Positions 15,342-27,940 of a DNA stretch of 33,611 nt are shown here, piece by piece (positions within the stretch are counted from its first letter, which is position 1; each line of letters opens with the position of its first letter). Source of the stretch: Lewinellaceae bacterium (lineage in GTDB: Bacteria; Bacteroidota; Bacteroidia; Chitinophagales; Saprospiraceae). The translations under genes and the position numbers were made by a program. The DNA is taken from contig CANJPT010000047.1 in assembly GCA_947476195.1 (NCBI GenBank), positions 1 to 33,611 on the forward strand, given 5' to 3'. The notes below the pieces were generated by a model. The model did not search any database and was not told where the DNA came from. It was given only the letters and a program-made list of their open reading frames with translations.

Positions 15342-15352
15342 TTGGTGGAATT

Positions 15353-15444
15353 GTATATTGGTATACCTAAGCCAGATGGTTGTATGTTCAATCTGAAAAA
15401 TACAAAAATCACGCTTAGGTATACCAATATACCAACATACCAAA
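15353..15444. repeat. 20-bp perfect inverted repeat with ATACCAA triplet
   Basis: The left arm begins GTATATTGGTATACC and occupies 15353-15372. Bases 15413-15432 are its exact reverse complement, with 40 bases between. The right arm runs into three tandem 8-base units, ATACCAAT, ATACCAAC and ATACCAAA (15421-15444), so half of the palindrome is also a direct repeat. It follows the DUF3467 stop codon by 11 bases and may act as a 3'-end stem, but it has no T-run. Confidence 0.65.
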
Positions 15445-16438: not shown

Positions 16439-16453
16439 TTTCCCATTTTGGGA
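16439..16453. promoter_or_regulatory. Palindrome upstream of the NtrC-FIST-kinase operon, shared with 22391-22405
   Basis: TTTCCCATTTTGGGA contains the perfect palindrome TCCCA-TTT-TGGGA. A word identical at 14 of 15 bases, TTTCCAATTTTGGGA, occurs at 22391-22405 in the gene-free region downstream of the operon. Sharing between the two ends of a regulatory operon suggests a binding site for the operon's own activator. It lies 25 bases before the TTGGCA element at 16479. Confidence 0.45.
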
Positions 16454-16478
16454 CACGTTTATTCGGTAAGCACTGAAT

Positions 16479-16494
16479 TTGGCACTTTATGTAT
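16479..16494 (+). promoter_or_regulatory. Sigma-54-like element TTGGCA-N7-TAT
   Basis: TTGGCAC matches the sigma-54 -24 element well. At the -12 position the bases are GTAT rather than TTGC, so it is not a canonical promoter. The same TTGGCA-N7-TAT pattern is found at 22479-22494 behind the shared palindrome. It lies 83 bases before the NtrC-type ATG. Confidence 0.3.
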
Positions 16495-16524
16495 TAATTT
16501 GTCTTTTTATACCGCTTTCATTTT

Positions 16525-16532
16525 TACATTTG
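16525..16532 (+). promoter_or_regulatory. Candidate housekeeping -7 box (TACATTTG)
   Basis: TACATTTG matches TANNTTTG and lies 45 bases before the ATG at 16578. The -33 region lacks a TTG at 19-20 bases. It is an alternative to the sigma-54-like element for basal transcription of the operon. Confidence 0.35.
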
Positions 16533-16577
16533 CTTTGGCGAACACCTTTAAATGGTCTTTGTAAAAGGAAAATAATC

Positions 16578-17927
16578 ATGGCAAGAGACCCAGTTATTCG
16601 AATTTTTGTAGTGGAGGATGATCCCGTTTTTCAACGGTTGGTCAAGTATGTCGTTGAGATGGATACTGATCATGAAGTACACGTTTTTACCACTGGGAAA
16701 GAATGTTTGTCTAATCTTAGCCTGAAGCCTGATATCGTGTCGTTGGACTACTCCCTTCCGGATATGACGGGAGAAGAAGTGCTGAAGCGGATCAAAGCAT
16801 TCGACCCGGAAATTGGCGTTATCATTTTATCTGGTCAACAGGATATTGGTACAGCAGTGAAATTGCTTAGGGAGGGTGCGTATGATTACCTGATTAAGGA
16901 TGCTGAAACAAAAGAACGGCTTCAAAACGCCCTTGTCAACATCAAGAAGCAAATTGGCTTAAGAAGGGAGGTGGACACGCTAAAGGCTGAACTGGTAGAA
17001 AAATATGATTTTAGCAAGCATCTCATTGGCCAGAGTCCGCCCATGCTTCAGGTGTATCAACTAGTCGAAAGAGCAGCCAGATCAAATATCAATGTTTCTA
17101 TTCAGGGTGAATCTGGTACCGGCAAGGAAGTAGTTGCTAAAAGTATTCACCATAATTCTGTACGCCGTAATGGGCCATTCATTGCGCTTAATATGAGTGC
17201 TATTCCCAAAGAACTCCTTGAAAGTGAGTTGTTTGGTTACGAAAAGGGAGCTTTTACCGGAGCTTTGGCCCGAAAAAAGGGGCAATTTGAATTGTCCAAT
17301 GGCGGCTCACTATTCTTGGATGAAATAGCAGACCTTGATATCACTATGCAGGCAAAATTGCTTCGTGCTTTGCAAGAGCGGGAATTCATCAGGGTGGGCG
17401 GTGAAAGTCTTATCCCATTTGATACACGGCTGATTGTTGCCACCCATAAAAATCTGGCTGAAGAGGTTCAGAAAGGAAATTTTCGGGAAGATCTTTACTA
17501 CCGGTTGCTTGGCTTGAGCATTCATCTCCCTCCCTTGCGCGAACGCAGCAACGACATACTATTACTGGCTAAAACTTTTCTATCCAACTTTGCCAGACAG
17601 CATGGCGCAAAACCATTGGAATTATCTAAAGAAGCCAAAACCAAGCTGTTAGAGTATCCGTTCCCAGGCAATGTCAGGGAGCTTATGGCAGTAATTGAAT
17701 TGGCTTCTGTGATGGCTGAAGGGAAATTTATAGCGGCAGAAGACATTCAATTCAACAGCATTTCAAAAACTACCGAATTTCTCCAGCAGGAGCATACGCT
17801 GGAAGAATACAAAGACCAGATCATTCATTTTTACCTCCGAAAATACAATGAAAATGTACAGGTGGTAGCAGATAAATTGGATATCGGGAAATCTACCATC
17901 TATAGACTTTTACAAATTAAAAGGTAA
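16578..17927 (+). CDS. NtrC-type sigma-54-dependent response regulator
   Basis: A 449-residue transcription activator. The receiver domain is ~8-125, with acidic residues in VVEDDPVF and phospho-acceptor Asp57 in SLDYSLPDMTG. The AAA+ domain is ~150-385: GESGTGKE Walker A at 177-184, GAFTGA loop at 224-229 that contacts sigma-54, and LFLDEIADL Walker B with Asp248 and Glu249. The C-terminus (VVADKLDIGKSTIYRLLQIK) is a Fis-type DNA-binding helix-turn-helix. The intact GAFTGA loop implies activation of sigma-54 promoters. It is followed after one base by the FIST gene and then by a hybrid kinase, which is its probable cognate sensor. The in-frame stretch from 16479 uses TTG and lacks domain content, so the ATG at 16578 (MARDPVIRIF, preceded by an A-rich leader) was chosen. 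Confidence 0.93.
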   Translation: MARDPVIRIFVVEDDPVFQRLVKYVVEMDTDHEVHVFTTGKECLSNLSLKPDIVSLDYSLPDMTGEEVLKRIKAFDPEIGVIILSGQQDIGTAVKLLREGAYDYLIKDAETKERLQNALVNIKKQIGLRREVDTLKAELVEKYDFSKHLIGQSPPMLQVYQLVERAARSNINVSIQGESGTGKEVVAKSIHHNSVRRNGPFIALNMSAIPKELLESELFGYEKGAFTGALARKKGQFELSNGGSLFLDEIADLDITMQAKLLRALQEREFIRVGGESLIPFDTRLIVATHKNLAEEVQKGNFREDLYYRLLGLSIHLPPLRERSNDILLLAKTFLSNFARQHGAKPLELSKEAKTKLLEYPFPGNVRELMAVIELASVMAEGKFIAAEDIQFNSISKTTEFLQQEHTLEEYKDQIIHFYLRKYNENVQVVADKLDIGKSTIYRLLQIKR

Positions 17928-17928
17928 T

Positions 17929-19047
17929 ATGCTACTCAAGCCCAGTTCCGTTTCGATATTGGTTGAACAGATAGAATCACTCCATACAGCAGCTGGAGAA
18001 GTAGTTATATTGCTTTTTGCGGAACAGGATACTCCGGATATTCCCGCGCTTATTGAAGCCTTGAATGCAAGAAAGATTCATTTTTTTGGCGGTATTTTCC
18101 CTGCCTTAATTTACGGAAATCAGCGCATTGAAGCAGGCTGCATCCTAAAAAAATTCAAGTACTTATTGCCGCCATTTTGTGTCTCTGGCATTACTTCAGC
18201 CTACTTTTCCGGACTCCCTTCCGTAGACGATACAGAGCACCTTAAAAACGGAACAGCGATCATATTGCTGGACGGACTCGCCAATAACCTGTACCATTTT
18301 CTGGAAACCTTGAATGTTTTATTGGGAGAAAGTTGCAGTTTTATCGGGGGGGGAGCCGGTTCCATCAGTCTCCAGCAATCGCCTTGTATTTTTTCTTCTG
18401 AAGGATTCCTGGTAGATGCCGCAGTAGTCTGTGTAATCGATCAGCAGGTCAGTTTGGGTATCAGGCAAGGTTGGGAGCGCCTGGCAGGTCCTTTTGTTGC
18501 GACCAAAACAGCCGGGAATGCGATTCTACAACTAAACTGGCGGAATGCCTTCGATGTGTATAAGGATATCGTAGAAAAGGACAGCGGGATTACCCTGGAG
18601 CAGCATAATTTCGGAGGAATCGCACAGGGTTACCCATTCGGCATCCTGCGCGAAAAAGAAGATGACATTGTACGCGATCCATTGACCATTGGTACGAATG
18701 GATCAATCGTCTGTATCGGAGAAGTTCCGCCAAATACCGTATTATATATTCTGAAAGGACGCCCTGAAGCATTACTCCAGGCTACGCAAAAGGCTATCAG
18801 CGAGAGTTCAGAAAAGGACGGAATACCATTTGAAGCAAAAGGAACCTTTGTCGTTGATTGCATCACCCGCACCACGTTTCTGAACGAACAATTTGCCGAA
18901 GAATTGAATATCATCCGGAATGGAGTGGTCATAAACTCGGATGAGCAGGAGCCCTATGGTATTTTAAGCCTTGGCGAGATCGCTTCCTATGGCGAGGGTT
19001 TATTAGAACTTTTCAATAAAACCATTGTAATAGGCGCATTCCATTGA
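17929..19047 (+). CDS. FIST domain sensor protein
   Basis: A 372-residue cytoplasmic protein matching the FIST_N plus FIST_C arrangement. The N-terminal half has alternating strands and helices around HFFGGIFPALIYGNQ and the glycine-rich FIGGGAGSISLQ. The C-terminal half has GIAQGYPFGI and EQEPYGILSLGEI, typical of FIST_C. FIST modules are predicted to bind small ligands, perhaps amino acids, and act as input domains for kinases, cyclases or chemoreceptors; a direct ligand is not shown here. No kinase or methyl-accepting domain is fused. It starts 1 base after the regulator's stop and ends 13 bases before the kinase, so it likely works as a separate input subunit of that pathway. Confidence 0.85.
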   Translation: MLLKPSSVSILVEQIESLHTAAGEVVILLFAEQDTPDIPALIEALNARKIHFFGGIFPALIYGNQRIEAGCILKKFKYLLPPFCVSGITSAYFSGLPSVDDTEHLKNGTAIILLDGLANNLYHFLETLNVLLGESCSFIGGGAGSISLQQSPCIFSSEGFLVDAAVVCVIDQQVSLGIRQGWERLAGPFVATKTAGNAILQLNWRNAFDVYKDIVEKDSGITLEQHNFGGIAQGYPFGILREKEDDIVRDPLTIGTNGSIVCIGEVPPNTVLYILKGRPEALLQATQKAISESSEKDGIPFEAKGTFVVDCITRTTFLNEQFAEELNIIRNGVVINSDEQEPYGILSLGEIASYGEGLLELFNKTIVIGAFH

Positions 19048-19060
19048 ATCTACCATCCTT

Positions 19061-22000
19061 ATGAAAACTCAGGTCAAGATAATTCAGGATATTTCACTGC
19101 TTTATGAGCTCTCTCTTTCCGTGGGCAGTACGCTCGATCCGCAGGATAATTGTCTCCAATTCCTACGAACCTTGATTCAGCGGAAAAGCCTAAGCTTTGG
19201 CTCTGTTTGGCTGTATGATAAGACCTCGACAAGACCAGAAACAAGCTGCAGGATCTTTTATACCTATCCTAATTTTCGGCGTACCACAAGCGCTGTAGTT
19301 TGCCCCACTTTTATACGGGATGAACTCTCGTCCAAACCGTACTTCAGTCTAAAGAGTCAAACGCCCCATTTTGGAAACACTTTTCAGGAAAAAAAGATCA
19401 AAGACGGATCATTTGCCATTTTCAGACTGGGTGACCTGGGATTTTTAAAACTATGCGCTACAAACCGTCCGGATGGTTTTTCTATCCTAGAGATGGAGCA
19501 GTTAAAACAAGTAGTAGACAAGCTAAAAGTCTCTCTGGAAGGCTGTTTTGCCCATATTCAATTAAAGGAAGAGACAGAGAACCGATTAACGGCTCAAAAG
19601 GCGCTGGAAGAAAGTGAAAACAAATTACGTCGCATTATTGACTCCTCTCTGGACGCGGTCGTTTCGGCAGATGAAGCAGGAATGGCCATTGAATGGAATG
19701 CTCAGGCAGAGAAGATGTTTGGATATACGCGCCACGAAGTTTTGGGGAATCGACTGCTGGATATGTTCATTCCCGAGCGGCACTGGCATTCGTTCCAGAC
19801 CTCGTTTGAAGAATATCTCCGGACTTCCGATGAACACCAGATCAGCAGACGTTTTGAAACCAAATGTATTCGAAAAGACAATACTGAATTTCTGGCCGAA
19901 TTGAGCATCAATGTAGACATAAACAAAAAAAATGTATTATATGTAGGCTTTGTACGCGATATCACGGAGCAAAGAAAAGCAGAGAAGGAACTGGAACAGG
20001 CCCATATTCGAATGGAAACGCTGATTTCCAATTTACAGTCAGGTATTTTGCTTGAAGGGAAAGACAATAAAATAGCACTGGCCAATCAGGCCTTTTGCAA
20101 CCTTTTTTCTTTTGCGATAACGCCGGATTCATTGATCGGTTTGGATGGTGGTTTGGTGGTCGAACAATCTAAAAACCTTTTTACCGACCCCGAAGCATTT
20201 TCCAGAGGTATCGAACAGGCTGAAAAGAACAAAGTCCTGATCACCAATGATGTTGTAACCATGACCAATGGCAAGGTGTTAGAGCGAGACTATATGCCAT
20301 TAGCTTCCGGTCACGAACAACTCGGGCATCTTTGGCAATATCACGATATTACTGAACGCCAAAACACGGAGCAGGCCATTCGGGAGAACGAAGAAAAATA
20401 TCGGGATGTATTACAGAACATGGACTTAGGACTGCTGGAAGTTGATTTGGAAGACAATATCCTCCGTGCGAACAACGCATTTTGCCGAATACTGGGTTAT
20501 ACTCCAGAGGAACTGATCGGGAAAAATGCAGGAAACACCTTTTTATCGCCTTCTTCCAGAAAAATTATAGATGACCGGTTGAAAGAGCGTAAGGAGAATC
20601 TGTCCAGTGTATATGAGTTACAGATGAAAAGGAAAGACGGAACCCTAATCTGGGGGCTTATCAGTGGTGCACCAACCAAAAATACACAGGGCCAGGTGAA
20701 TGGCTCCATTGGGATTCAATTTGATCTGACCGATCGAAAAAAACTGGAAACGGAATTGGCGGAAGCTAAGCAAGTAGCAGAGCGGGCAAGATTAGCCGAA
20801 CGGCAGTTTCTTACGCACATGAGCCATGAGATCCGGACACCCATAAATGCTGTGATTGGGATGACCCACTTGCTGGATACAACATATCCGGATGAGACAC
20901 AAAGGGATTACCTCAACAGTCTGCGCTTTTCTGCGGATAGCCTCCTGGGTATTGTTGATAACATTCTAGACCTTTCAAAGATTGATGCAGGAGAAATAGA
21001 ATTTGAAAAGAAGCCTTTTGATTTAAATTATCTGCTGAAATCTTTGATGCAGTCTATTCAGTACAAAAAAGACCCTAATACCCTTGCTATTCTTGAAAAA
21101 ATTGACCCGGACGTTGAAAACCTGGTGATTGGAGACCCTACCAGGCTCAACCAGATTCTTACCAACCTTTTGGGGAATGCCTTAAAATTTACAAAAAAAG
21201 GAGAGATTGCTCTCCAAACAACGGTGCTCTCCAAAACAGAATTGGAGTACCACATCGAGTTTAGAGTGCATGATACCGGAATAGGTATCCCTGAAGATAA
21301 ACACGAAACGATTTTTGAATATTTCAAACAAGCCGATGTACAGACGAATCGTATTTTTGGGGGTACCGGATTGGGGCTCACCATTGTAAAGCAGCTGGTT
21401 GAAATGATGGACGGCAGCATTCGGGTAGAGAGTAAACTTGGTATAGGCTCTGACTTTATTTTTGTCTTAAGCTTTGGCAACTCCGGGATTCCATTTGCCG
21501 GTATGAATGCCCCAGGGGTATTGGATGGGCAGCAAAACAAACACTTGCTTAAAGGCCTACACTTTCTAATTGTTGAAGATAATCTACTGAATCAAAAACT
21601 CATCTGTAAAACCATAGAGACCTGGGAGTGCAGCTTCGAACTTGCGCGAAATGGGCGGGAGGCCTTAGAAAAAACGGCTAAATCACTTTTTGATCTAATT
21701 TTGATGGATTTTCACATGCCAGAGTTAGATGGTTGCGAAGCTACCTGGGCAATCCGTAATGATTTGCAGAACCCCAATAGAAATGTCCCGATCATAGCGC
21801 TCACTGCTGCTGCTATGTTAGATGATAAAAAAAGGGCCTTTGAGGCCGGTATGAATAGCTTTCTCACCAAACCAATTTCCCCCAAAAATCTTCAGGAACA
21901 TATTTTACGTGCTATACTTGAATTTGGTAGAAAGGATGGATCTGATACCGTAAACGTAATCCATCCCGCTTCCAAGATCGTAAGCACTGTTGATTTAGGC

Positions 22001-22333
22001 TATCTTTTAAACCTGAGTAATGGGGATATTCTTTTTGTAACTGAAATTATAGAGTCTTTTCTGACGGAAACCCCCAATTACTTAAAGGCTTTGCAAGTGG
22101 TTGCCCAAAAACAGGAATGGGATCAGTGCTACTTTATCGTACATCGCTTGAAACCCAATTTTGATATGTTTGGCATGAAGCTACTGGCAGATAAATCGGC
22201 ATTTTTAGAAGAATATTTTAAAAAAGGCAGCCTCGCCGTAGATCAACTATCCGAGTTAATCACTCAATTAATCGAAGGCGCTAATCTTGCTTTACCGCTG
22301 CTTGCTCAGGAGAAAAAAGCTTTGCTTTTGTAA
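19061..22333 (+). CDS. Hybrid sensor histidine kinase (GAF-like, three PAS, HisKA, HATPase, REC, Hpt)
   Basis: A 1090-residue soluble hybrid kinase with no membrane segment. Domains in order: GAF-like region ~1-170; PAS1 ~188-300; PAS2 ~318-435; PAS3 ~446-565; HisKA with FLTHMSHEIRTP and phospho-acceptor His589; HATPase_c with Asn706 in the N box, DTGIGIPED and GGTGLGL; receiver ~830-955 with Asp883 in LILMDFHMPELDG and Lys in FLTKPIS; and a C-terminal Hpt domain with His1028 in VHRLKPNFDMFG. This gives a full phosphorelay ending on the Asp57 of the NtrC-type regulator two genes upstream (inferred partner). PAS1 to PAS3 could bind flavin, haem or small ligands; none of their cofactors can be called from sequence. 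Input may also come from the FIST protein. Confidence 0.93.
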   Translation: MKTQVKIIQDISLLYELSLSVGSTLDPQDNCLQFLRTLIQRKSLSFGSVWLYDKTSTRPETSCRIFYTYPNFRRTTSAVVCPTFIRDELSSKPYFSLKSQTPHFGNTFQEKKIKDGSFAIFRLGDLGFLKLCATNRPDGFSILEMEQLKQVVDKLKVSLEGCFAHIQLKEETENRLTAQKALEESENKLRRIIDSSLDAVVSADEAGMAIEWNAQAEKMFGYTRHEVLGNRLLDMFIPERHWHSFQTSFEEYLRTSDEHQISRRFETKCIRKDNTEFLAELSINVDINKKNVLYVGFVRDITEQRKAEKELEQAHIRMETLISNLQSGILLEGKDNKIALANQAFCNLFSFAITPDSLIGLDGGLVVEQSKNLFTDPEAFSRGIEQAEKNKVLITNDVVTMTNGKVLERDYMPLASGHEQLGHLWQYHDITERQNTEQAIRENEEKYRDVLQNMDLGLLEVDLEDNILRANNAFCRILGYTPEELIGKNAGNTFLSPSSRKIIDDRLKERKENLSSVYELQMKRKDGTLIWGLISGAPTKNTQGQVNGSIGIQFDLTDRKKLETELAEAKQVAERARLAERQFLTHMSHEIRTPINAVIGMTHLLDTTYPDETQRDYLNSLRFSADSLLGIVDNILDLSKIDAGEIEFEKKPFDLNYLLKSLMQSIQYKKDPNTLAILEKIDPDVENLVIGDPTRLNQILTNLLGNALKFTKKGEIALQTTVLSKTELEYHIEFRVHDTGIGIPEDKHETIFEYFKQADVQTNRIFGGTGLGLTIVKQLVEMMDGSIRVESKLGIGSDFIFVLSFGNSGIPFAGMNAPGVLDGQQNKHLLKGLHFLIVEDNLLNQKLICKTIETWECSFELARNGREALEKTAKSLFDLILMDFHMPELDGCEATWAIRNDLQNPNRNVPIIALTAAAMLDDKKRAFEAGMNSFLTKPISPKNLQEHILRAILEFGRKDGSDTVNVIHPASKIVSTVDLGYLLNLSNGDILFVTEIIESFLTETPNYLKALQVVAQKQEWDQCYFIVHRLKPNFDMFGMKLLADKSAFLEEYFKKGSLAVDQLSELITQLIEGANLALPLLAQEKKALLL

Positions 22334-22379
22334 TATCAGCAACCCTGGGCCACCGTACAATCCATTATTTACAAGTCAT

Positions 22380-22426
22380 TTGGAAACCATTTTCCAATTT
22401 TGGGAATTATATTCCAATAATTGGAA
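22380..22426. promoter_or_regulatory. Cluster of TTGGAA/TTCCAA palindromes (operator or enhancer)
   Basis: Within 47 bases there are two palindromes: TTGGAAA-CCAT-TTTCCAA (22380-22397, perfect 7-bp arms) and TTCCAA-TAA-TTGGAA (22412-22426, perfect 6-bp arms). Between them lies the word TTTCCAATTTTGGGA (22391-22405) that is shared with 16439-16453. Repeated palindromes 50-100 bases upstream of a sigma-54-like element are the usual layout of enhancer sites for NtrC-type activators. Confidence 0.5.
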
Positions 22427-22449
22427 ATATATTATATTTTGTAAATTTG
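22421..22449 (+). promoter_or_regulatory. Alternative housekeeping promoter TTG-N18-TAAATTTG
   Basis: TTG (22421-22423) and TAAATTTG (22442-22449) are spaced 18 bases apart, close to the Bacteroidota consensus of 19-20. The TTG is part of the second TTGGAA palindrome, so bound protein could block this promoter. Confidence 0.35.
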
Positions 22450-22478
22450 TAAATTATTAAAAATCAATAATTTAATTG

Positions 22479-22494
22479 TTGGCATGTTTTTTAT
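22479..22494 (+). promoter_or_regulatory. Sigma-54-like element TTGGCA-N7-TAT heading the gene-free region
   Basis: TTGGCATG is an excellent -24 match. The -12 position reads TTAT rather than TTGC, as in the parallel element at 16479-16494. It lies about 52 bases downstream of the last TTGGAA palindrome. Confidence 0.35.
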
Positions 22495-22922
22495 ACTTTA
22501 AACATTAATCCTACGCTGAATAGGATTTCAAAACACGCTTTTCAATTTACGTTAATCCTTCGCCTGTATCCGTAGTGTTAAGCCATAAATTTAAGCAAAT
22601 CAATTGATTTAGATTTTAGTGGTTGTTTTTTGTTGAACTTGTTCTTTAATCGTTACTATCGCACTTGGCTAAGGTTGTAAAATTTGCCCAATGGAAACAA
22701 AATTTGCTCGTTTTCCCTTCTAATCAAAATCCAGAATAAGTTCATAATCCTTACGCGCTTCCTAATTTTTATTTAATCCCTACACGCTTTTTTTAATCTT
22801 TTAGCAGTCCATCTTAGTATTTAAAGTTCCGAATGTGCCAATTTTTTTTGTATTTTGCATTTCGGGTCTTTTTTTGTGGTGTTCGGAATGGCGAACATTT
22901 CAAAGTTGTTGTAAGCCTTTAA

Positions 22923-22993
22923 AGCATGTTGGATTTTTTTCCTGGACGCAAAAATTAGTACCTTTTTTGACACAGTAAAAAAACCAACATGCT
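22923..22993. repeat. Inverted repeat AGCATGTTGG / CCAACATGCT with A/T-run arms
   Basis: AGCATGTTGG (22923-22932) pairs with CCAACATGCT (22984-22993). The stem is extended by T7 (22934-22940) against A7 (22977-22983), with a one-base bulge and a 36-base loop. It could be an RNA stem or a decayed mobile-element end. Confidence 0.45.
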
Positions 22994-23206
22994 CATAGGT
23001 CATTGAAATACGGCGATTTAAAGTTGGCCATTGAGCAATACTCATGGCTTTTTTGGTTGAATTCTTGTTCCTTTAATCCATAAAAATTACGCTTCTTGGT
23101 CTAGTCAGCATGTGCTCGTTTTTTAATTTTAACCAAGGCGTAATTTTTTTCCGCATTAAAACATATTCAAATTTATTTTTGACCACGTGAATACTTTTCT
23201 TTATTA

Positions 23207-23243
23207 GGGTGCTACTATGTCCGAGTAGCACCCTTGTTTTTTT
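23207..23243 (+). terminator. Strong Rho-independent terminator with no gene directly upstream
   Basis: GGGTGCTACT (23207-23216) pairs perfectly with AGTAGCACCC (23224-23233) around a 7-base loop, and is followed by TTGTTTTTTT. Orientation is plus strand. The nearest plus-strand stop codon is at 22333. Confidence 0.9.
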
Positions 23244-23540
23244 GATAAAATCTGCGTAAAGGAATAGAATAAGAGCCTCGAGGGATCTCTAAGCACTTTT
23301 TTTTGGATTTTAGAGCTTATTCGGGTTTGAACCGACAAATTGCAGCTCACTTTTTCTTTGTTTTTTCGCCATATAATCCAATATAGTACTGAAAATTGCG
23401 CCTAAACTAAAGCAATATTTCATCAATTCCAGTTATAACCCAAACCCAGAACAAGCTCTAATCCCAAATTTGTTGTCTCTGGACGGACAAATTATCCCGT
23501 ACAAAATTTAAAACAATTCGTTTTTTTTCCTCAAACTCTC

Positions 23541-23548
23541 TACTTTTG
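23541..23548 (+). promoter_or_regulatory. Candidate -7 box (TACTTTTG) for uvrA
   Basis: TACTTTTG matches TANNTTTG and lies 46 bases before the ATG. The -33 region is a T-run without a clear TTG. Confidence 0.5.
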
Positions 23549-23594
23549 TCTTTTCGCGAAAACACGATCGCAATTCCATTGTTTTCAAGCTCAA

Positions 23595-26924: not shown

Positions 26925-27218
26925 TTAGATTGTGGTCACATCCATCTTGGCATATTCGGCGTGCGTGCCAGCAAAGCGAATGAAAACAGTGCGTATATCA
27001 AAGAAGATCATAACAACGACTCGGTAACGATTCCCACGGATATTGAATACAAAGCGGTCATTGCCAACATAATCTACTGAGTTGAACATTTTCCGAACAT
27101 CACCTGGTGCACCCCAATCAGCCTCTTTTACGAGGCAATACCAATCGTTCAGTGCGTCGATTGCTTGAGGATATTCGGCTCCAAAATCCCGCAGTTTAGT
27201 TTTGCTGATAATGATCAT
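26925..27218 (-). CDS. higB: HigB-type toxin (RelE-superfamily mRNA interferase)
   Basis: A 97-residue protein with the HigB_toxin pattern: MIIISKTKLRDFGAEYPQA, then LNDWYCLVKEADWGAPGDVRK, and a C-terminal sheet with RFVFNIRGNRYRVVV and FIRFAGTHAEYAKMD. HigB toxins of this group cut ribosome-bound mRNA when freed from HigA. Key basic residues of the core (Arg in NIRGNRYR, and the GTHAEYAK segment with His) are intact, so the toxin looks functional. The reading frame extends upstream to 27419, but the conserved start MIIISKTKLRDF and the promoter at 27227-27257 favour the ATG at 27218. Confidence 0.88.
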   Translation of the reverse strand: MIIISKTKLRDFGAEYPQAIDALNDWYCLVKEADWGAPGDVRKMFNSVDYVGNDRFVFNIRGNRYRVVVMIFFDIRTVFIRFAGTHAEYAKMDVTTI

Positions 27219-27258
27219 TTGAAATGCAAAAATAGCCAATAAAATTACACATTTCAAA
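27218..27258 (-). promoter_or_regulatory. higBA promoter framed by a 9-bp inverted repeat (candidate HigA operator)
   Basis: On the minus strand TTG (27257-27255) and TATTTTTG (27234-27227) are spaced 20 bases apart, a good Bacteroidota promoter. TTTGAAATG (27218-27226) and its exact complement CATTTCAAA (27250-27258) flank it, with centres about 32 bases apart, roughly three helical turns. The -7 box ends only 9 bases before the toxin ATG, so the message would have almost no leader. Confidence 0.6.
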
Positions 27259-27359
27259 ATTAAATTCCAAATAGAGCTAAGTTTTGATCGCTTCTTACTT
27301 CCCGTTTCAACATTCCGACATATATTTTTGCCCCGAAACGAAATAGTTTTCAACTTTCC

Positions 27360-27390
27360 TTTGCCAAAAAGATAAGAGTTCATACTTTTG
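27360..27390 (+). promoter_or_regulatory. Consensus promoter TTTG-N19-TACTTTTG for DUF177-rpmF
   Basis: TTTG at 27360-27363 and TACTTTTG at 27383-27390 with 19 bases between them give a textbook Bacteroidota sigma-A promoter, 28 bases before the ATG at 27419. Confidence 0.75.
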
Positions 27391-27418
27391 CCGCCCGTTT
27401 TGAAAAACTTCCTAGTCA

Positions 27419-27940
27419 ATGGACGCTTTTGTTGCGTACGCCTTACCCATTCAAGGGTTAAAAACTGGCCTACATCATTTTAAATTTGAAGTTGACAGCG
27501 CTTTTTTCGCTCAGTTCGAAGATTCGCCCGTAGAAGAGGGCAAAGTTCAATTTGAACTCGAACTGGACAAACGGCCTGATATGATGCTTTTCGATTTTAC
27601 AATGGAAGGTTTCATAAAAGCTGAGTGTGACAGATGTACCGCCGCCATTGATTTGCCGATCGAAGATGAACGACAACTCATAGTGAAATTTGGAGAAGAA
27701 GACATAGAACTGGACGATGAGGTGATTTTTATGCACCGAGATGCTCCGGTTTTCAATGTGGCAAAGTATCTGTACGAATTTATTGTGCTCGCTTTGCCCA
27801 TTACGAATATCTACGATTGCGAGAACGACCCAGAGCCGCCTTGCAATTTTGAAGTGCTGAAGCACTTAAAATCAGAAACAGACGAAGGAGATACCAATTC
27901 AGTTTGGGACAGCCTTCGAGACTTGAATAGCGATAATTAA
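27419..27940 (+). CDS. DUF177 (YceD-family) protein
   Basis: A 173-residue acidic protein of the YceD/DUF177 family. The core includes GFIKAECDRCTAAIDLPIED with a CxxC pair and EDIELDDEVIF, and a second cysteine pair in YDCENDPEPPC near the C-terminus. In many bacteria this gene precedes rpmF, as it does here (90 bases upstream). The family is linked to ribosomal RNA processing or large-subunit maturation, but a precise activity is not established. It has its own strong promoter, so it and rpmF probably form one transcript that ends at 28264-28300. Start: the first ATG, giving the usual N-terminus. Confidence 0.88.
   Translation: MDAFVAYALPIQGLKTGLHHFKFEVDSAFFAQFEDSPVEEGKVQFELELDKRPDMMLFDFTMEGFIKAECDRCTAAIDLPIEDERQLIVKFGEEDIELDDEVIFMHRDAPVFNVAKYLYEFIVLALPITNIYDCENDPEPPCNFEVLKHLKSETDEGDTNSVWDSLRDLNSDN

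What the first reader, a model, noticed from the sequence alone, without database searches (positions are those of the whole stretch)
16439..22494. A regulator operon and the gene-free region after it share the same palindrome and promoter-like element
TTTCCCATTTTGGGA (16439-16453) precedes the NtrC-FIST-kinase operon; TTTCCAATTTTGGGA (22391-22405) lies just after it. They are identical at 14 of 15 bases and palindromic. Each is followed by TTGGCA-N7-TAT (16479-16494 and 22479-22494), close to a sigma-54 -24 element with an unusual -12. Spacing differs (25 vs 73 bases), which weakens the case. Inference: the NtrC-type activator controls its own operon and a neighbouring transcript.
Basis: partly seen in the sequence, partly recalled or inferred. 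Interest (0 to 1): 0.7.

Follow-up and report, generated by a model that had tools for sequence, protein, structure and literature searches.

The report
Regulator operon with adjacent RNA promoter
Just after a bacterial sensor-regulator operon lies a promoter of a layout that recurs beside related regulators in the same order of bacteria, and here it seems to switch on a stretch of RNA that codes for no protein.

Summary
The shared word is one version of TTCC-N7-GGAA, an operator-like palindrome that recurs beside homologues of this NtrC-type regulator: 45 exact non-coding sites in 72 loci against 0-8 for nine other spacers. It lies 67-70 or 86-89 bp before a TGGCAY sigma-54 -24 element. After the operon the window has both operators in place (22392 and 22412, 88 and 68 bp before TGGCAT at 22480) plus an IHF-consensus site. 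This is very probably an enhancer-dependent sigma-54-type promoter fired by the adjacent regulator, although its -12 is AT, not G-C/T. It points into 1.1 kb without a credible gene, with a terminator-like hairpin at 23206-23234. Two congeners have the promoter, intact or half-decayed, in the same place, then about 220-260 nt without a shared open frame and a terminator-like hairpin. I infer a small RNA made beside its activator, as with CrcZ, GlmY or Qrr. The upstream copy (16440 to 16480, 40 bp) misses the conserved spacing; self-control is unproven. The RNA itself is a prediction and its sequence is hardly conserved.

The parts
16440..16454 (.).
   Evidence: One mismatch to TTCC-N7-GGAA; 40 bp before TGGCA, not the canonical spacing
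16479..16494 (+). Upstream TTGGCA-N7-TAT, -24-like; role doubtful
   Evidence: found in 14 of 3000 shuffles of the intergenic stretch
16498..16532 (+). TTTG (16498-16501), 23 bp, TACATTTG (16525-16532): vegetative Bacteroidota-type promoter candidate for the operon
   Evidence: the consensus TTTG / TAnnTTTG is recalled
16578..17927 (+). NtrC-type response regulator: receiver, sigma-54 activation domain with GAFTGA, C-terminal helix-turn-helix by eye
17929..19047 (+). FIST-domain protein
   Evidence: Pfam FIST and FIST_C over cut-off
19061..22333 (+). Hybrid PAS histidine kinase with receiver and Hpt domains
22392..22406 (.). Operator 1, TTCCAATTTTGGGAA, 88 bp before TGGCA
22412..22426 (.). Operator 2, TTCCAATAATTGGAA, 68 bp before TGGCA
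22462..22474 (+). IHF-consensus site AATCAATAATTTA in the linker
   Evidence: consensus recalled
22479..22494 (+). Sigma-54-type core promoter TTGGCA-N7-TAT; -24 intact, -12 AT instead of G-C/T
22506..23240 (+). Predicted non-coding transcript; start inferred from the -24 position, no RNA data
22505..23092 (+). Five TTAATCC/ATAATCC motifs (22505, 22552, 22744, 22773, 23073); four are followed by ACGC within 14 nt, the one at 22552 by TTCGC
   Evidence: motif noticed by eye before testing
23206..23234 (+). Terminator-like hairpin, 11 pairs, then a T run

Best explanation
The array after the operon (22392-22494) is an enhancer-dependent sigma-54-type promoter. The activated NtrC-type regulator of the same operon binds two palindromes TTCC-N7-GGAA two helical turns apart, an IHF-like protein bends the AT-rich linker, and the activator opens RNA polymerase-sigma-54 at TTGGCA. 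Transcription starts near 22506 and ends at the hairpin 23206-23234, giving a non-coding RNA of about 730 nt as the local output of the system; the FIST protein and hybrid kinase would supply the signal. Shown: the elements, their recurrence and fixed geometry around homologues, presence of rpoN, absence of a shared open frame, terminator-like hairpins. Inferred: binding, phosphorylation, use of sigma-54 despite the non-consensus -12, transcription, and a regulatory role of the RNA.
For: Exact TTCC-N7-GGAA in non-coding DNA of 72 loci: 45, against 0-8 for nine other spacers; in coding DNA 19 against 7-23. Before 71 regulators: 17 exact sites in 14 loci, against 0-4 for 13 other spacers. 22 of 84 non-coding TGGCAY words, in 19 loci, have an operator at 67-70 or 86-89 bp. 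IHF consensus in 9 of 22 linkers, shuffle mean 0.29, maximum 3 of 300 shuffles, at two fixed positions. The 75 other NtrC homologues show no N7 excess (1 against 0-4). Operator plus TGGCAY at the canonical spacing: 0 of 5000 shuffles of the region, one hit in the own genome. In the genus, 4 of 7 pattern hits in genomes with the regulator are intergenic, against 2 of 23 in genomes without it, 30 of 33 hits examined. G010 has the same promoter 90 bp after its kinase and G030 a half-decayed one, each followed by a stretch without a shared open frame and a terminator-like hairpin. rpoN present.
Against: The -12 is AT; 19 of 22 promoters have G at that place, and this genus supplies the three exceptions, with AC in G030. 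No RNA data. The three congeneric transcripts do not align except for the G010/G030 terminator, and their lengths differ (about 220, 260 and 730 nt). The G030 operator keeps only its left half, has 3 of 8 mismatches, overlaps the end of the kinase frame and is missed by the script at 2 mismatches. G026 has the operon without the promoter, and the kinase end of G365 has none either. The reversed-string control is weak in coding DNA. Homologous loci are not independent by descent. In most other genomes the promoter precedes protein genes.
Confidence: 0.6

Rival explanations
1. Vestigial promoter: the regulator once drove a protein gene here, such as the exopolysaccharide or CheY-like genes of relatives; the gene was lost, repeat relics moved in, and the promoter is decaying without a functional product.
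For: In other genomes the first open frame is often a protein gene close to the promoter. The -12 is off consensus in this genus, the G030 operator is half lost, the transcripts are not conserved in sequence, and the window's region holds relics of a dispersed repeat.
Against: Two exact operators, IHF site and -24 are kept in the window; three congeners keep the promoter position with a terminator-like hairpin; repeated motifs in the window transcript.
Confidence: 0.22
2. The promoter drives uvrA, 1.1 kb downstream, through a long untranslated leader.
For: uvrA is the next gene in the same direction.
Against: A terminator-like hairpin lies between; in G030 the next frame is convergent and in G010 the next long frame is on the other strand; a conserved stretch just before uvrA (23504-23586) may hold its own promoter.
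Confidence: 0.08
3. The palindrome at 16440 is an autoregulatory operator of the operon, repressing or activating from a non-canonical distance.
For: 14 of 15 identity with a true operator, 0 of 3000 shuffles; operators are common before homologous regulators, though several of them serve the divergent gene; a distant homologue in G012 has a similar word before its regulator.
Against: Spacing of 40 bp, single site, not kept in the four closest orthologues. TTCC-N7-GGAA with one mismatch occurs in 66 of 1000 shuffles.
Confidence: 0.3
4. Chance: AT-rich intergenic DNA produces such words.
For: The words allowing mismatches are at chance frequency in the window.
Against: Spacer- and distance-specific excess over 72 loci and 0 of 5000 shuffles for the downstream layout.
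Confidence: 0.03

Closest known systems
CbrAB-CrcZ of Pseudomonadaceae (PMC8871633, PMC6296734; passages read)
   Same: Regulatory RNA encoded just downstream of a two-component operon, with a sigma-54 promoter activated by the NtrC-type regulator, sites 20-25 bp apart, IHF between sites and promoter.
   Different: CbrB subsites are non-palindromic; CbrA is a different kinase and no FIST protein appears in the passages; the RNA here has no Rfam match.
QseE/QseG/QseF-GlmY of Enterobacteriaceae (PMC6075780; passages read)
   Same: sRNA gene next to the operon of its activator, sigma-54 promoter, IHF, upstream activating sequences; the operon itself is not autoregulated.
   Different: glmY lies upstream of the operon; the sites are TGT-N12-ACA.
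VpsV(FIST)-VpsS-LuxU-LuxO-Qrr of Vibrio (PMC4398556, PMC10162802; passages read)
   Same: FIST protein and hybrid kinase feed an NtrC-type regulator that activates sigma-54-dependent small RNAs through two palindromic sites.
   Different: Site TTGCAWWWTGCAA; separate LuxU phosphotransfer protein; Pseudomonadota; the regulator here scores far below the LuxO cut-off.
Sigma-54 promoters of Flavobacterium psychrophilum (PMC9723704; passages read)
   Same: Same phylum; -24/-12 promoters inferred from mapped transcription starts, one confirmed by promoter mutagenesis.
   Different: No activator site is assigned in the passages read; the genes differ (envelope stress, gliding).

Membership tests
Sigma-54 enhancer-dependent promoters | -24 element TGGC | tested here: met
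   TGGCAT at 22480
Sigma-54 enhancer-dependent promoters | -12 GC | tested here: not met
   AT in the window; G at this place in 19 of 22 related promoters
Sigma-54 enhancer-dependent promoters | Upstream activator sites at fixed distance | tested here: met
   Two exact operators at 68 and 88 bp
Sigma-54 enhancer-dependent promoters | Activator with sigma-54 interaction domain, and rpoN in the genome | tested here: met
Sigma-54 enhancer-dependent promoters | Transcription that depends on sigma-54 and the activator | not testable with these tools
   No expression data
Activator-linked regulatory RNA (CrcZ, GlmY, Qrr type) | Transcript without a conserved open frame, ending in a terminator | tested here: inconclusive
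   No shared frame, terminator-like hairpins in 3 congeners; transcript not observed
Activator-linked regulatory RNA (CrcZ, GlmY, Qrr type) | Match to a curated RNA family | tested here: not met
   No Rfam match in the region at E up to 1
Activator-linked regulatory RNA (CrcZ, GlmY, Qrr type) | Post-transcriptional function | not testable with these tools
   None
NosP nitric-oxide sensors | NCBIfam NF041558 cut-off | tested here: not met
   23.9 bits against 450
NtrC and LuxO equivalogs | NCBIfam cut-offs TIGR01818 and NF041946 | tested here: not met
   384.4 against 558.6; 348.1 against 800

The most novel reading that the evidence does not exclude
A family of Bacteroidota NtrC-type regulators has its own operator and a rigid enhancer geometry (TTCC-N7-GGAA twice, 20 bp apart, IHF site, TGGCAY). 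In one lineage, fed by a FIST protein and a hybrid kinase, it has exchanged protein targets for an adjacent RNA, in the window with five TTAATCC motifs that could titrate a protein: an independently evolved counterpart of CbrAB-CrcZ and LuxO-Qrr in a phylum where my searches listed none.
Probability: 0.35. Interest if true: 0.8.

Novelty: new variant of a known kind. Interest (0 to 1): 0.62.

Why it matters
It gives a testable DNA code (operator, spacing, IHF position, -24) for a widespread set of NtrC-type regulators: 101 of 396 genomes of the order searched hold a homologue at E 1e-125 or better. Their targets can then be read from sequence: exopolysaccharide-type genes, CheY-like regulators and, here, an RNA. 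An RNA made beside its activator, in a system with a FIST protein and hybrid kinase, would extend the CrcZ/GlmY/Qrr design to Bacteroidota.

Tried and rejected
Known RNA: no Rfam match in the gene-free region (the one match at E up to 1 in the window, 15349-15435, is far below its cut-off); no tRNA or tmRNA in the window. Shared small peptide: frames of 14 residues or more were listed in the three congeneric transcripts and none is common; G010 has a 34-residue ATG frame, the window only TTG-started ones, G030 none. Whole region as conserved DNA: its matches in relatives are dispersed repeats, an AT-rich word and a stretch before uvrA. Strict consensus TTGGCAYNNNNNTTGCW in the own genome: 3 hits, control 3, one of the 3 intergenic, so it says nothing about the usual -12. 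Two-operator scan of 60 relatives without the -24: hits in 55 of 60 genomes, the four loci read were three coding-like and one intergenic, so it was too loose. The reversed-string control of the pattern tool is biased: 38 against 14 sites, yet 32 of 37 examined sites are coding; I relied on spacer and distance controls.

Results against the reading are listed in the Against line; in addition, offset 80 bp holds 3 operators (2 exact) outside the two main peaks, and exact N7 sites 300-600 bp before the regulators are also raised (6 against 0-1).

In one search the row for L066 is an artefact because its gene start is off the contig;-36 locus L069 was fetched and not used.
Full report
What was checked. 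The operon is an NtrC-type response regulator, a FIST protein and a hybrid PAS kinase with receiver and Hpt domains, between a divergent radC and a downstream uvrA. The window lies in a 4.76 Mb, 224-contig assembly; it is probably Saprospiraceae-like Bacteroidota, judged only from the nearest named hit (L070). The word TTTCCMATTTTGGGA has two exact matches genome-wide, these two. RpoN is encoded, and the regulator has the GAFTGA loop.

Finding the motif. I collected homologues of the regulator: 7 of 42 genomes of the genus at E 1e-100 and 101 of 396 genomes of the order at E 1e-125. That listing shows 117 places by my count, of which 59 were fetched with flanks. With 7 of the 8 loci, 5 of the 80 loci and the window this makes 72 loci. 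By eye, upstream sequences showed a recurring TTCC-N7-GGAA. In the 300 bp before 71 regulators there are 17 exact sites in 14 loci, against 0-4 for 13 other spacers. Over all non-coding DNA of the 72 loci there are 45, against 0-8 for nine other spacers; in coding DNA 19, against 7-23. The remaining 75 loci, mostly from other phyla, show no excess (1 against 0-4). Coding and non-coding were told apart by a simple longest-ORF mask, and the loci are not independent by descent.

Fixed geometry. From exact non-coding operators, 44 downstream TGGCA-like words were found within 200 bp, 15 of them at 67-70 bp and 10 in the bin 80-89; the control palindrome CCTT-N7-AAGG gave 2. Starting from all 84 non-coding TGGCAY words, 22 in 19 loci have an operator (at most one mismatch) at 67-70 or 86-89 bp; outside these peaks only offset 80 holds more than one (3). 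Some promoters have both operators, about 20 bp apart. The first base of the -12 pair is G in 19 of 22; the exceptions are the window (AT), G010 (TG) and one G012 promoter (TA), all of this genus, although another G012 promoter has GC. An IHF consensus (WATCAANNNNTTR, recalled) occurs in 9 of 22 linkers against a shuffle mean of 0.29, centred 12-13 bp (one orientation) or 24-25 bp (the other) before TGGCA. This is the layout of an enhancer-dependent sigma-54 promoter.

The window against this layout. After the operon the window has TTCCAATTTTGGGAA at 22392 (88 bp), TTCCAATAATTGGAA at 22412 (68 bp), an IHF-like site at 22462-22474 and TGGCAT at 22480. Operator plus TGGCAY at the 67-70 spacing occurred in 0 of 5000 shuffles of the region and once in the own genome. 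Of 38 TTCCMN5KGGAA sites in the genome 37 were examined: 5 are intergenic, namely this pair, two between convergent genes and one between tandem genes. Among 30 of the 33 genus hits of the operator-TGGCAY pattern, 4 of 7 in genomes with the regulator are intergenic, against 2 of 23 in genomes without it. The upstream copy at 16440 is single, has one mismatch and sits 40 bp from TGGCA. The orthologues in G013, G030, G026 and G010 have only 4-6-mismatch matches, and a distant homologue in G012 a 2-mismatch one. A TACATTTG vegetative-type element lies closer to the gene. I therefore do not support self-activation through the TTGGCA at 16479. An autoregulatory role of the palindrome stays possible: in L234 and L235 the canonical promoter points at the regulator gene.

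What is transcribed. In other genomes the first open frame after such promoters is often a glycosyltransferase of one recurring type (L068, L181, L183, L193), a polysaccharide-export-like lipoprotein (L181; one more by eye in L193) or a CheY-like regulator (L071, L197, L213, L230, L231, L233; L228 by eye). These names are my reading of translations, not a family search. In the window there is no credible open frame before uvrA and an 11-pair terminator-like hairpin at 23206-23234. The predicted 735-nt RNA folds better than all of 20 shuffles (z -3.66), in part because of hairpins of the terminator and of inverted repeats. Five TTAATCC/ATAATCC motifs lie in it; AATCC followed by ACGC within 14 nt occurs 4 times against a shuffle mean of 0.02, a motif noticed by eye before it was tested. 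In G010 the promoter lies 90 bp after the kinase, then about 217 nt to the end of a terminator-like hairpin. In G030 a half-operator (3 of 8 bases off) overlaps the end of the kinase frame at exactly 68 bp from TGGCAC, then about 256 nt to the end of a similar hairpin, then a convergent frame that matches no Pfam family. G013 is cut by a contig end and G026 lacks the promoter. The RNA sequences do not align beyond the G010/G030 hairpin.

Comparison. The design matches regulatory RNAs encoded beside, or driven by, a sigma-54 activator: CrcZ downstream of cbrAB, GlmY next to qseEGF, and Qrr RNAs under LuxO, which is also fed by the hybrid kinase VpsS with its FIST partner VpsV (passages read). 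It is not a member of a curated RNA family, nor of the NosP, NtrC or LuxO equivalogs. Full-text searches for sigma-54, Bacteroidetes or Bacteroidota, small RNA, exopolysaccharide and Saprospiraceae terms listed nothing that describes it by title and abstract; of the listed papers I read passages of PMC9723704 and PMC12316311. Subscription papers are mostly not covered.

Verdict. Promoter and regulator link: about 0.8 likely. Functional non-coding RNA: about even.

Noticed in passing
window 22661-22747 (match) and 23310-23461; L002, L004, L007, L013, L020: A dispersed palindromic repeat of roughly 150-170 bp with ends like AGAGCTTGTTCGGGATTTTGG: own genome 3 places including the window, and 6 of the other 59 relatives searched; arms in L002 21 nt at 95% and in L004 77 nt at 70%. 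It looks like a MITE or REP-type element; the window holds one decayed copy and, by its inverted ends, perhaps a second.
   Followed up: partly
L068, L181, L183, L193 and others: The same promoter precedes exopolysaccharide-type genes and CheY-like regulators in other genomes: a likely order-wide regulon of these NtrC-type regulators.
   Followed up: partly
L273/L304 (G012:C2:71662-71756): Two exact operators 20 bp apart; a TGGCAC at the canonical distance points one way and an open frame starts on the other side: a possible bidirectional target.
   Followed up: no
window 22505-23092: Recurring TTAATCC motif, mostly followed by ACGC, in the predicted transcript; meaning unknown.
   Followed up: partly
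window 26925-27419, - strand: HigB-type toxin domain (Pfam HigB_toxin, 98.2 bits against a cut-off of 27); an antitoxin was not looked for.
   Followed up: no
window 23504-23586: Stretch just before uvrA similar to DNA in 4 congeners (G033, G010, G021, G017), perhaps the uvrA promoter region.
   Followed up: no
window 22446-22474; L008, L011, L018: AT-rich word around TTTGTAAATTATTAAAAATCAATA shared with other places in congeners that show no TTGGCA beside it.
   Followed up: partly
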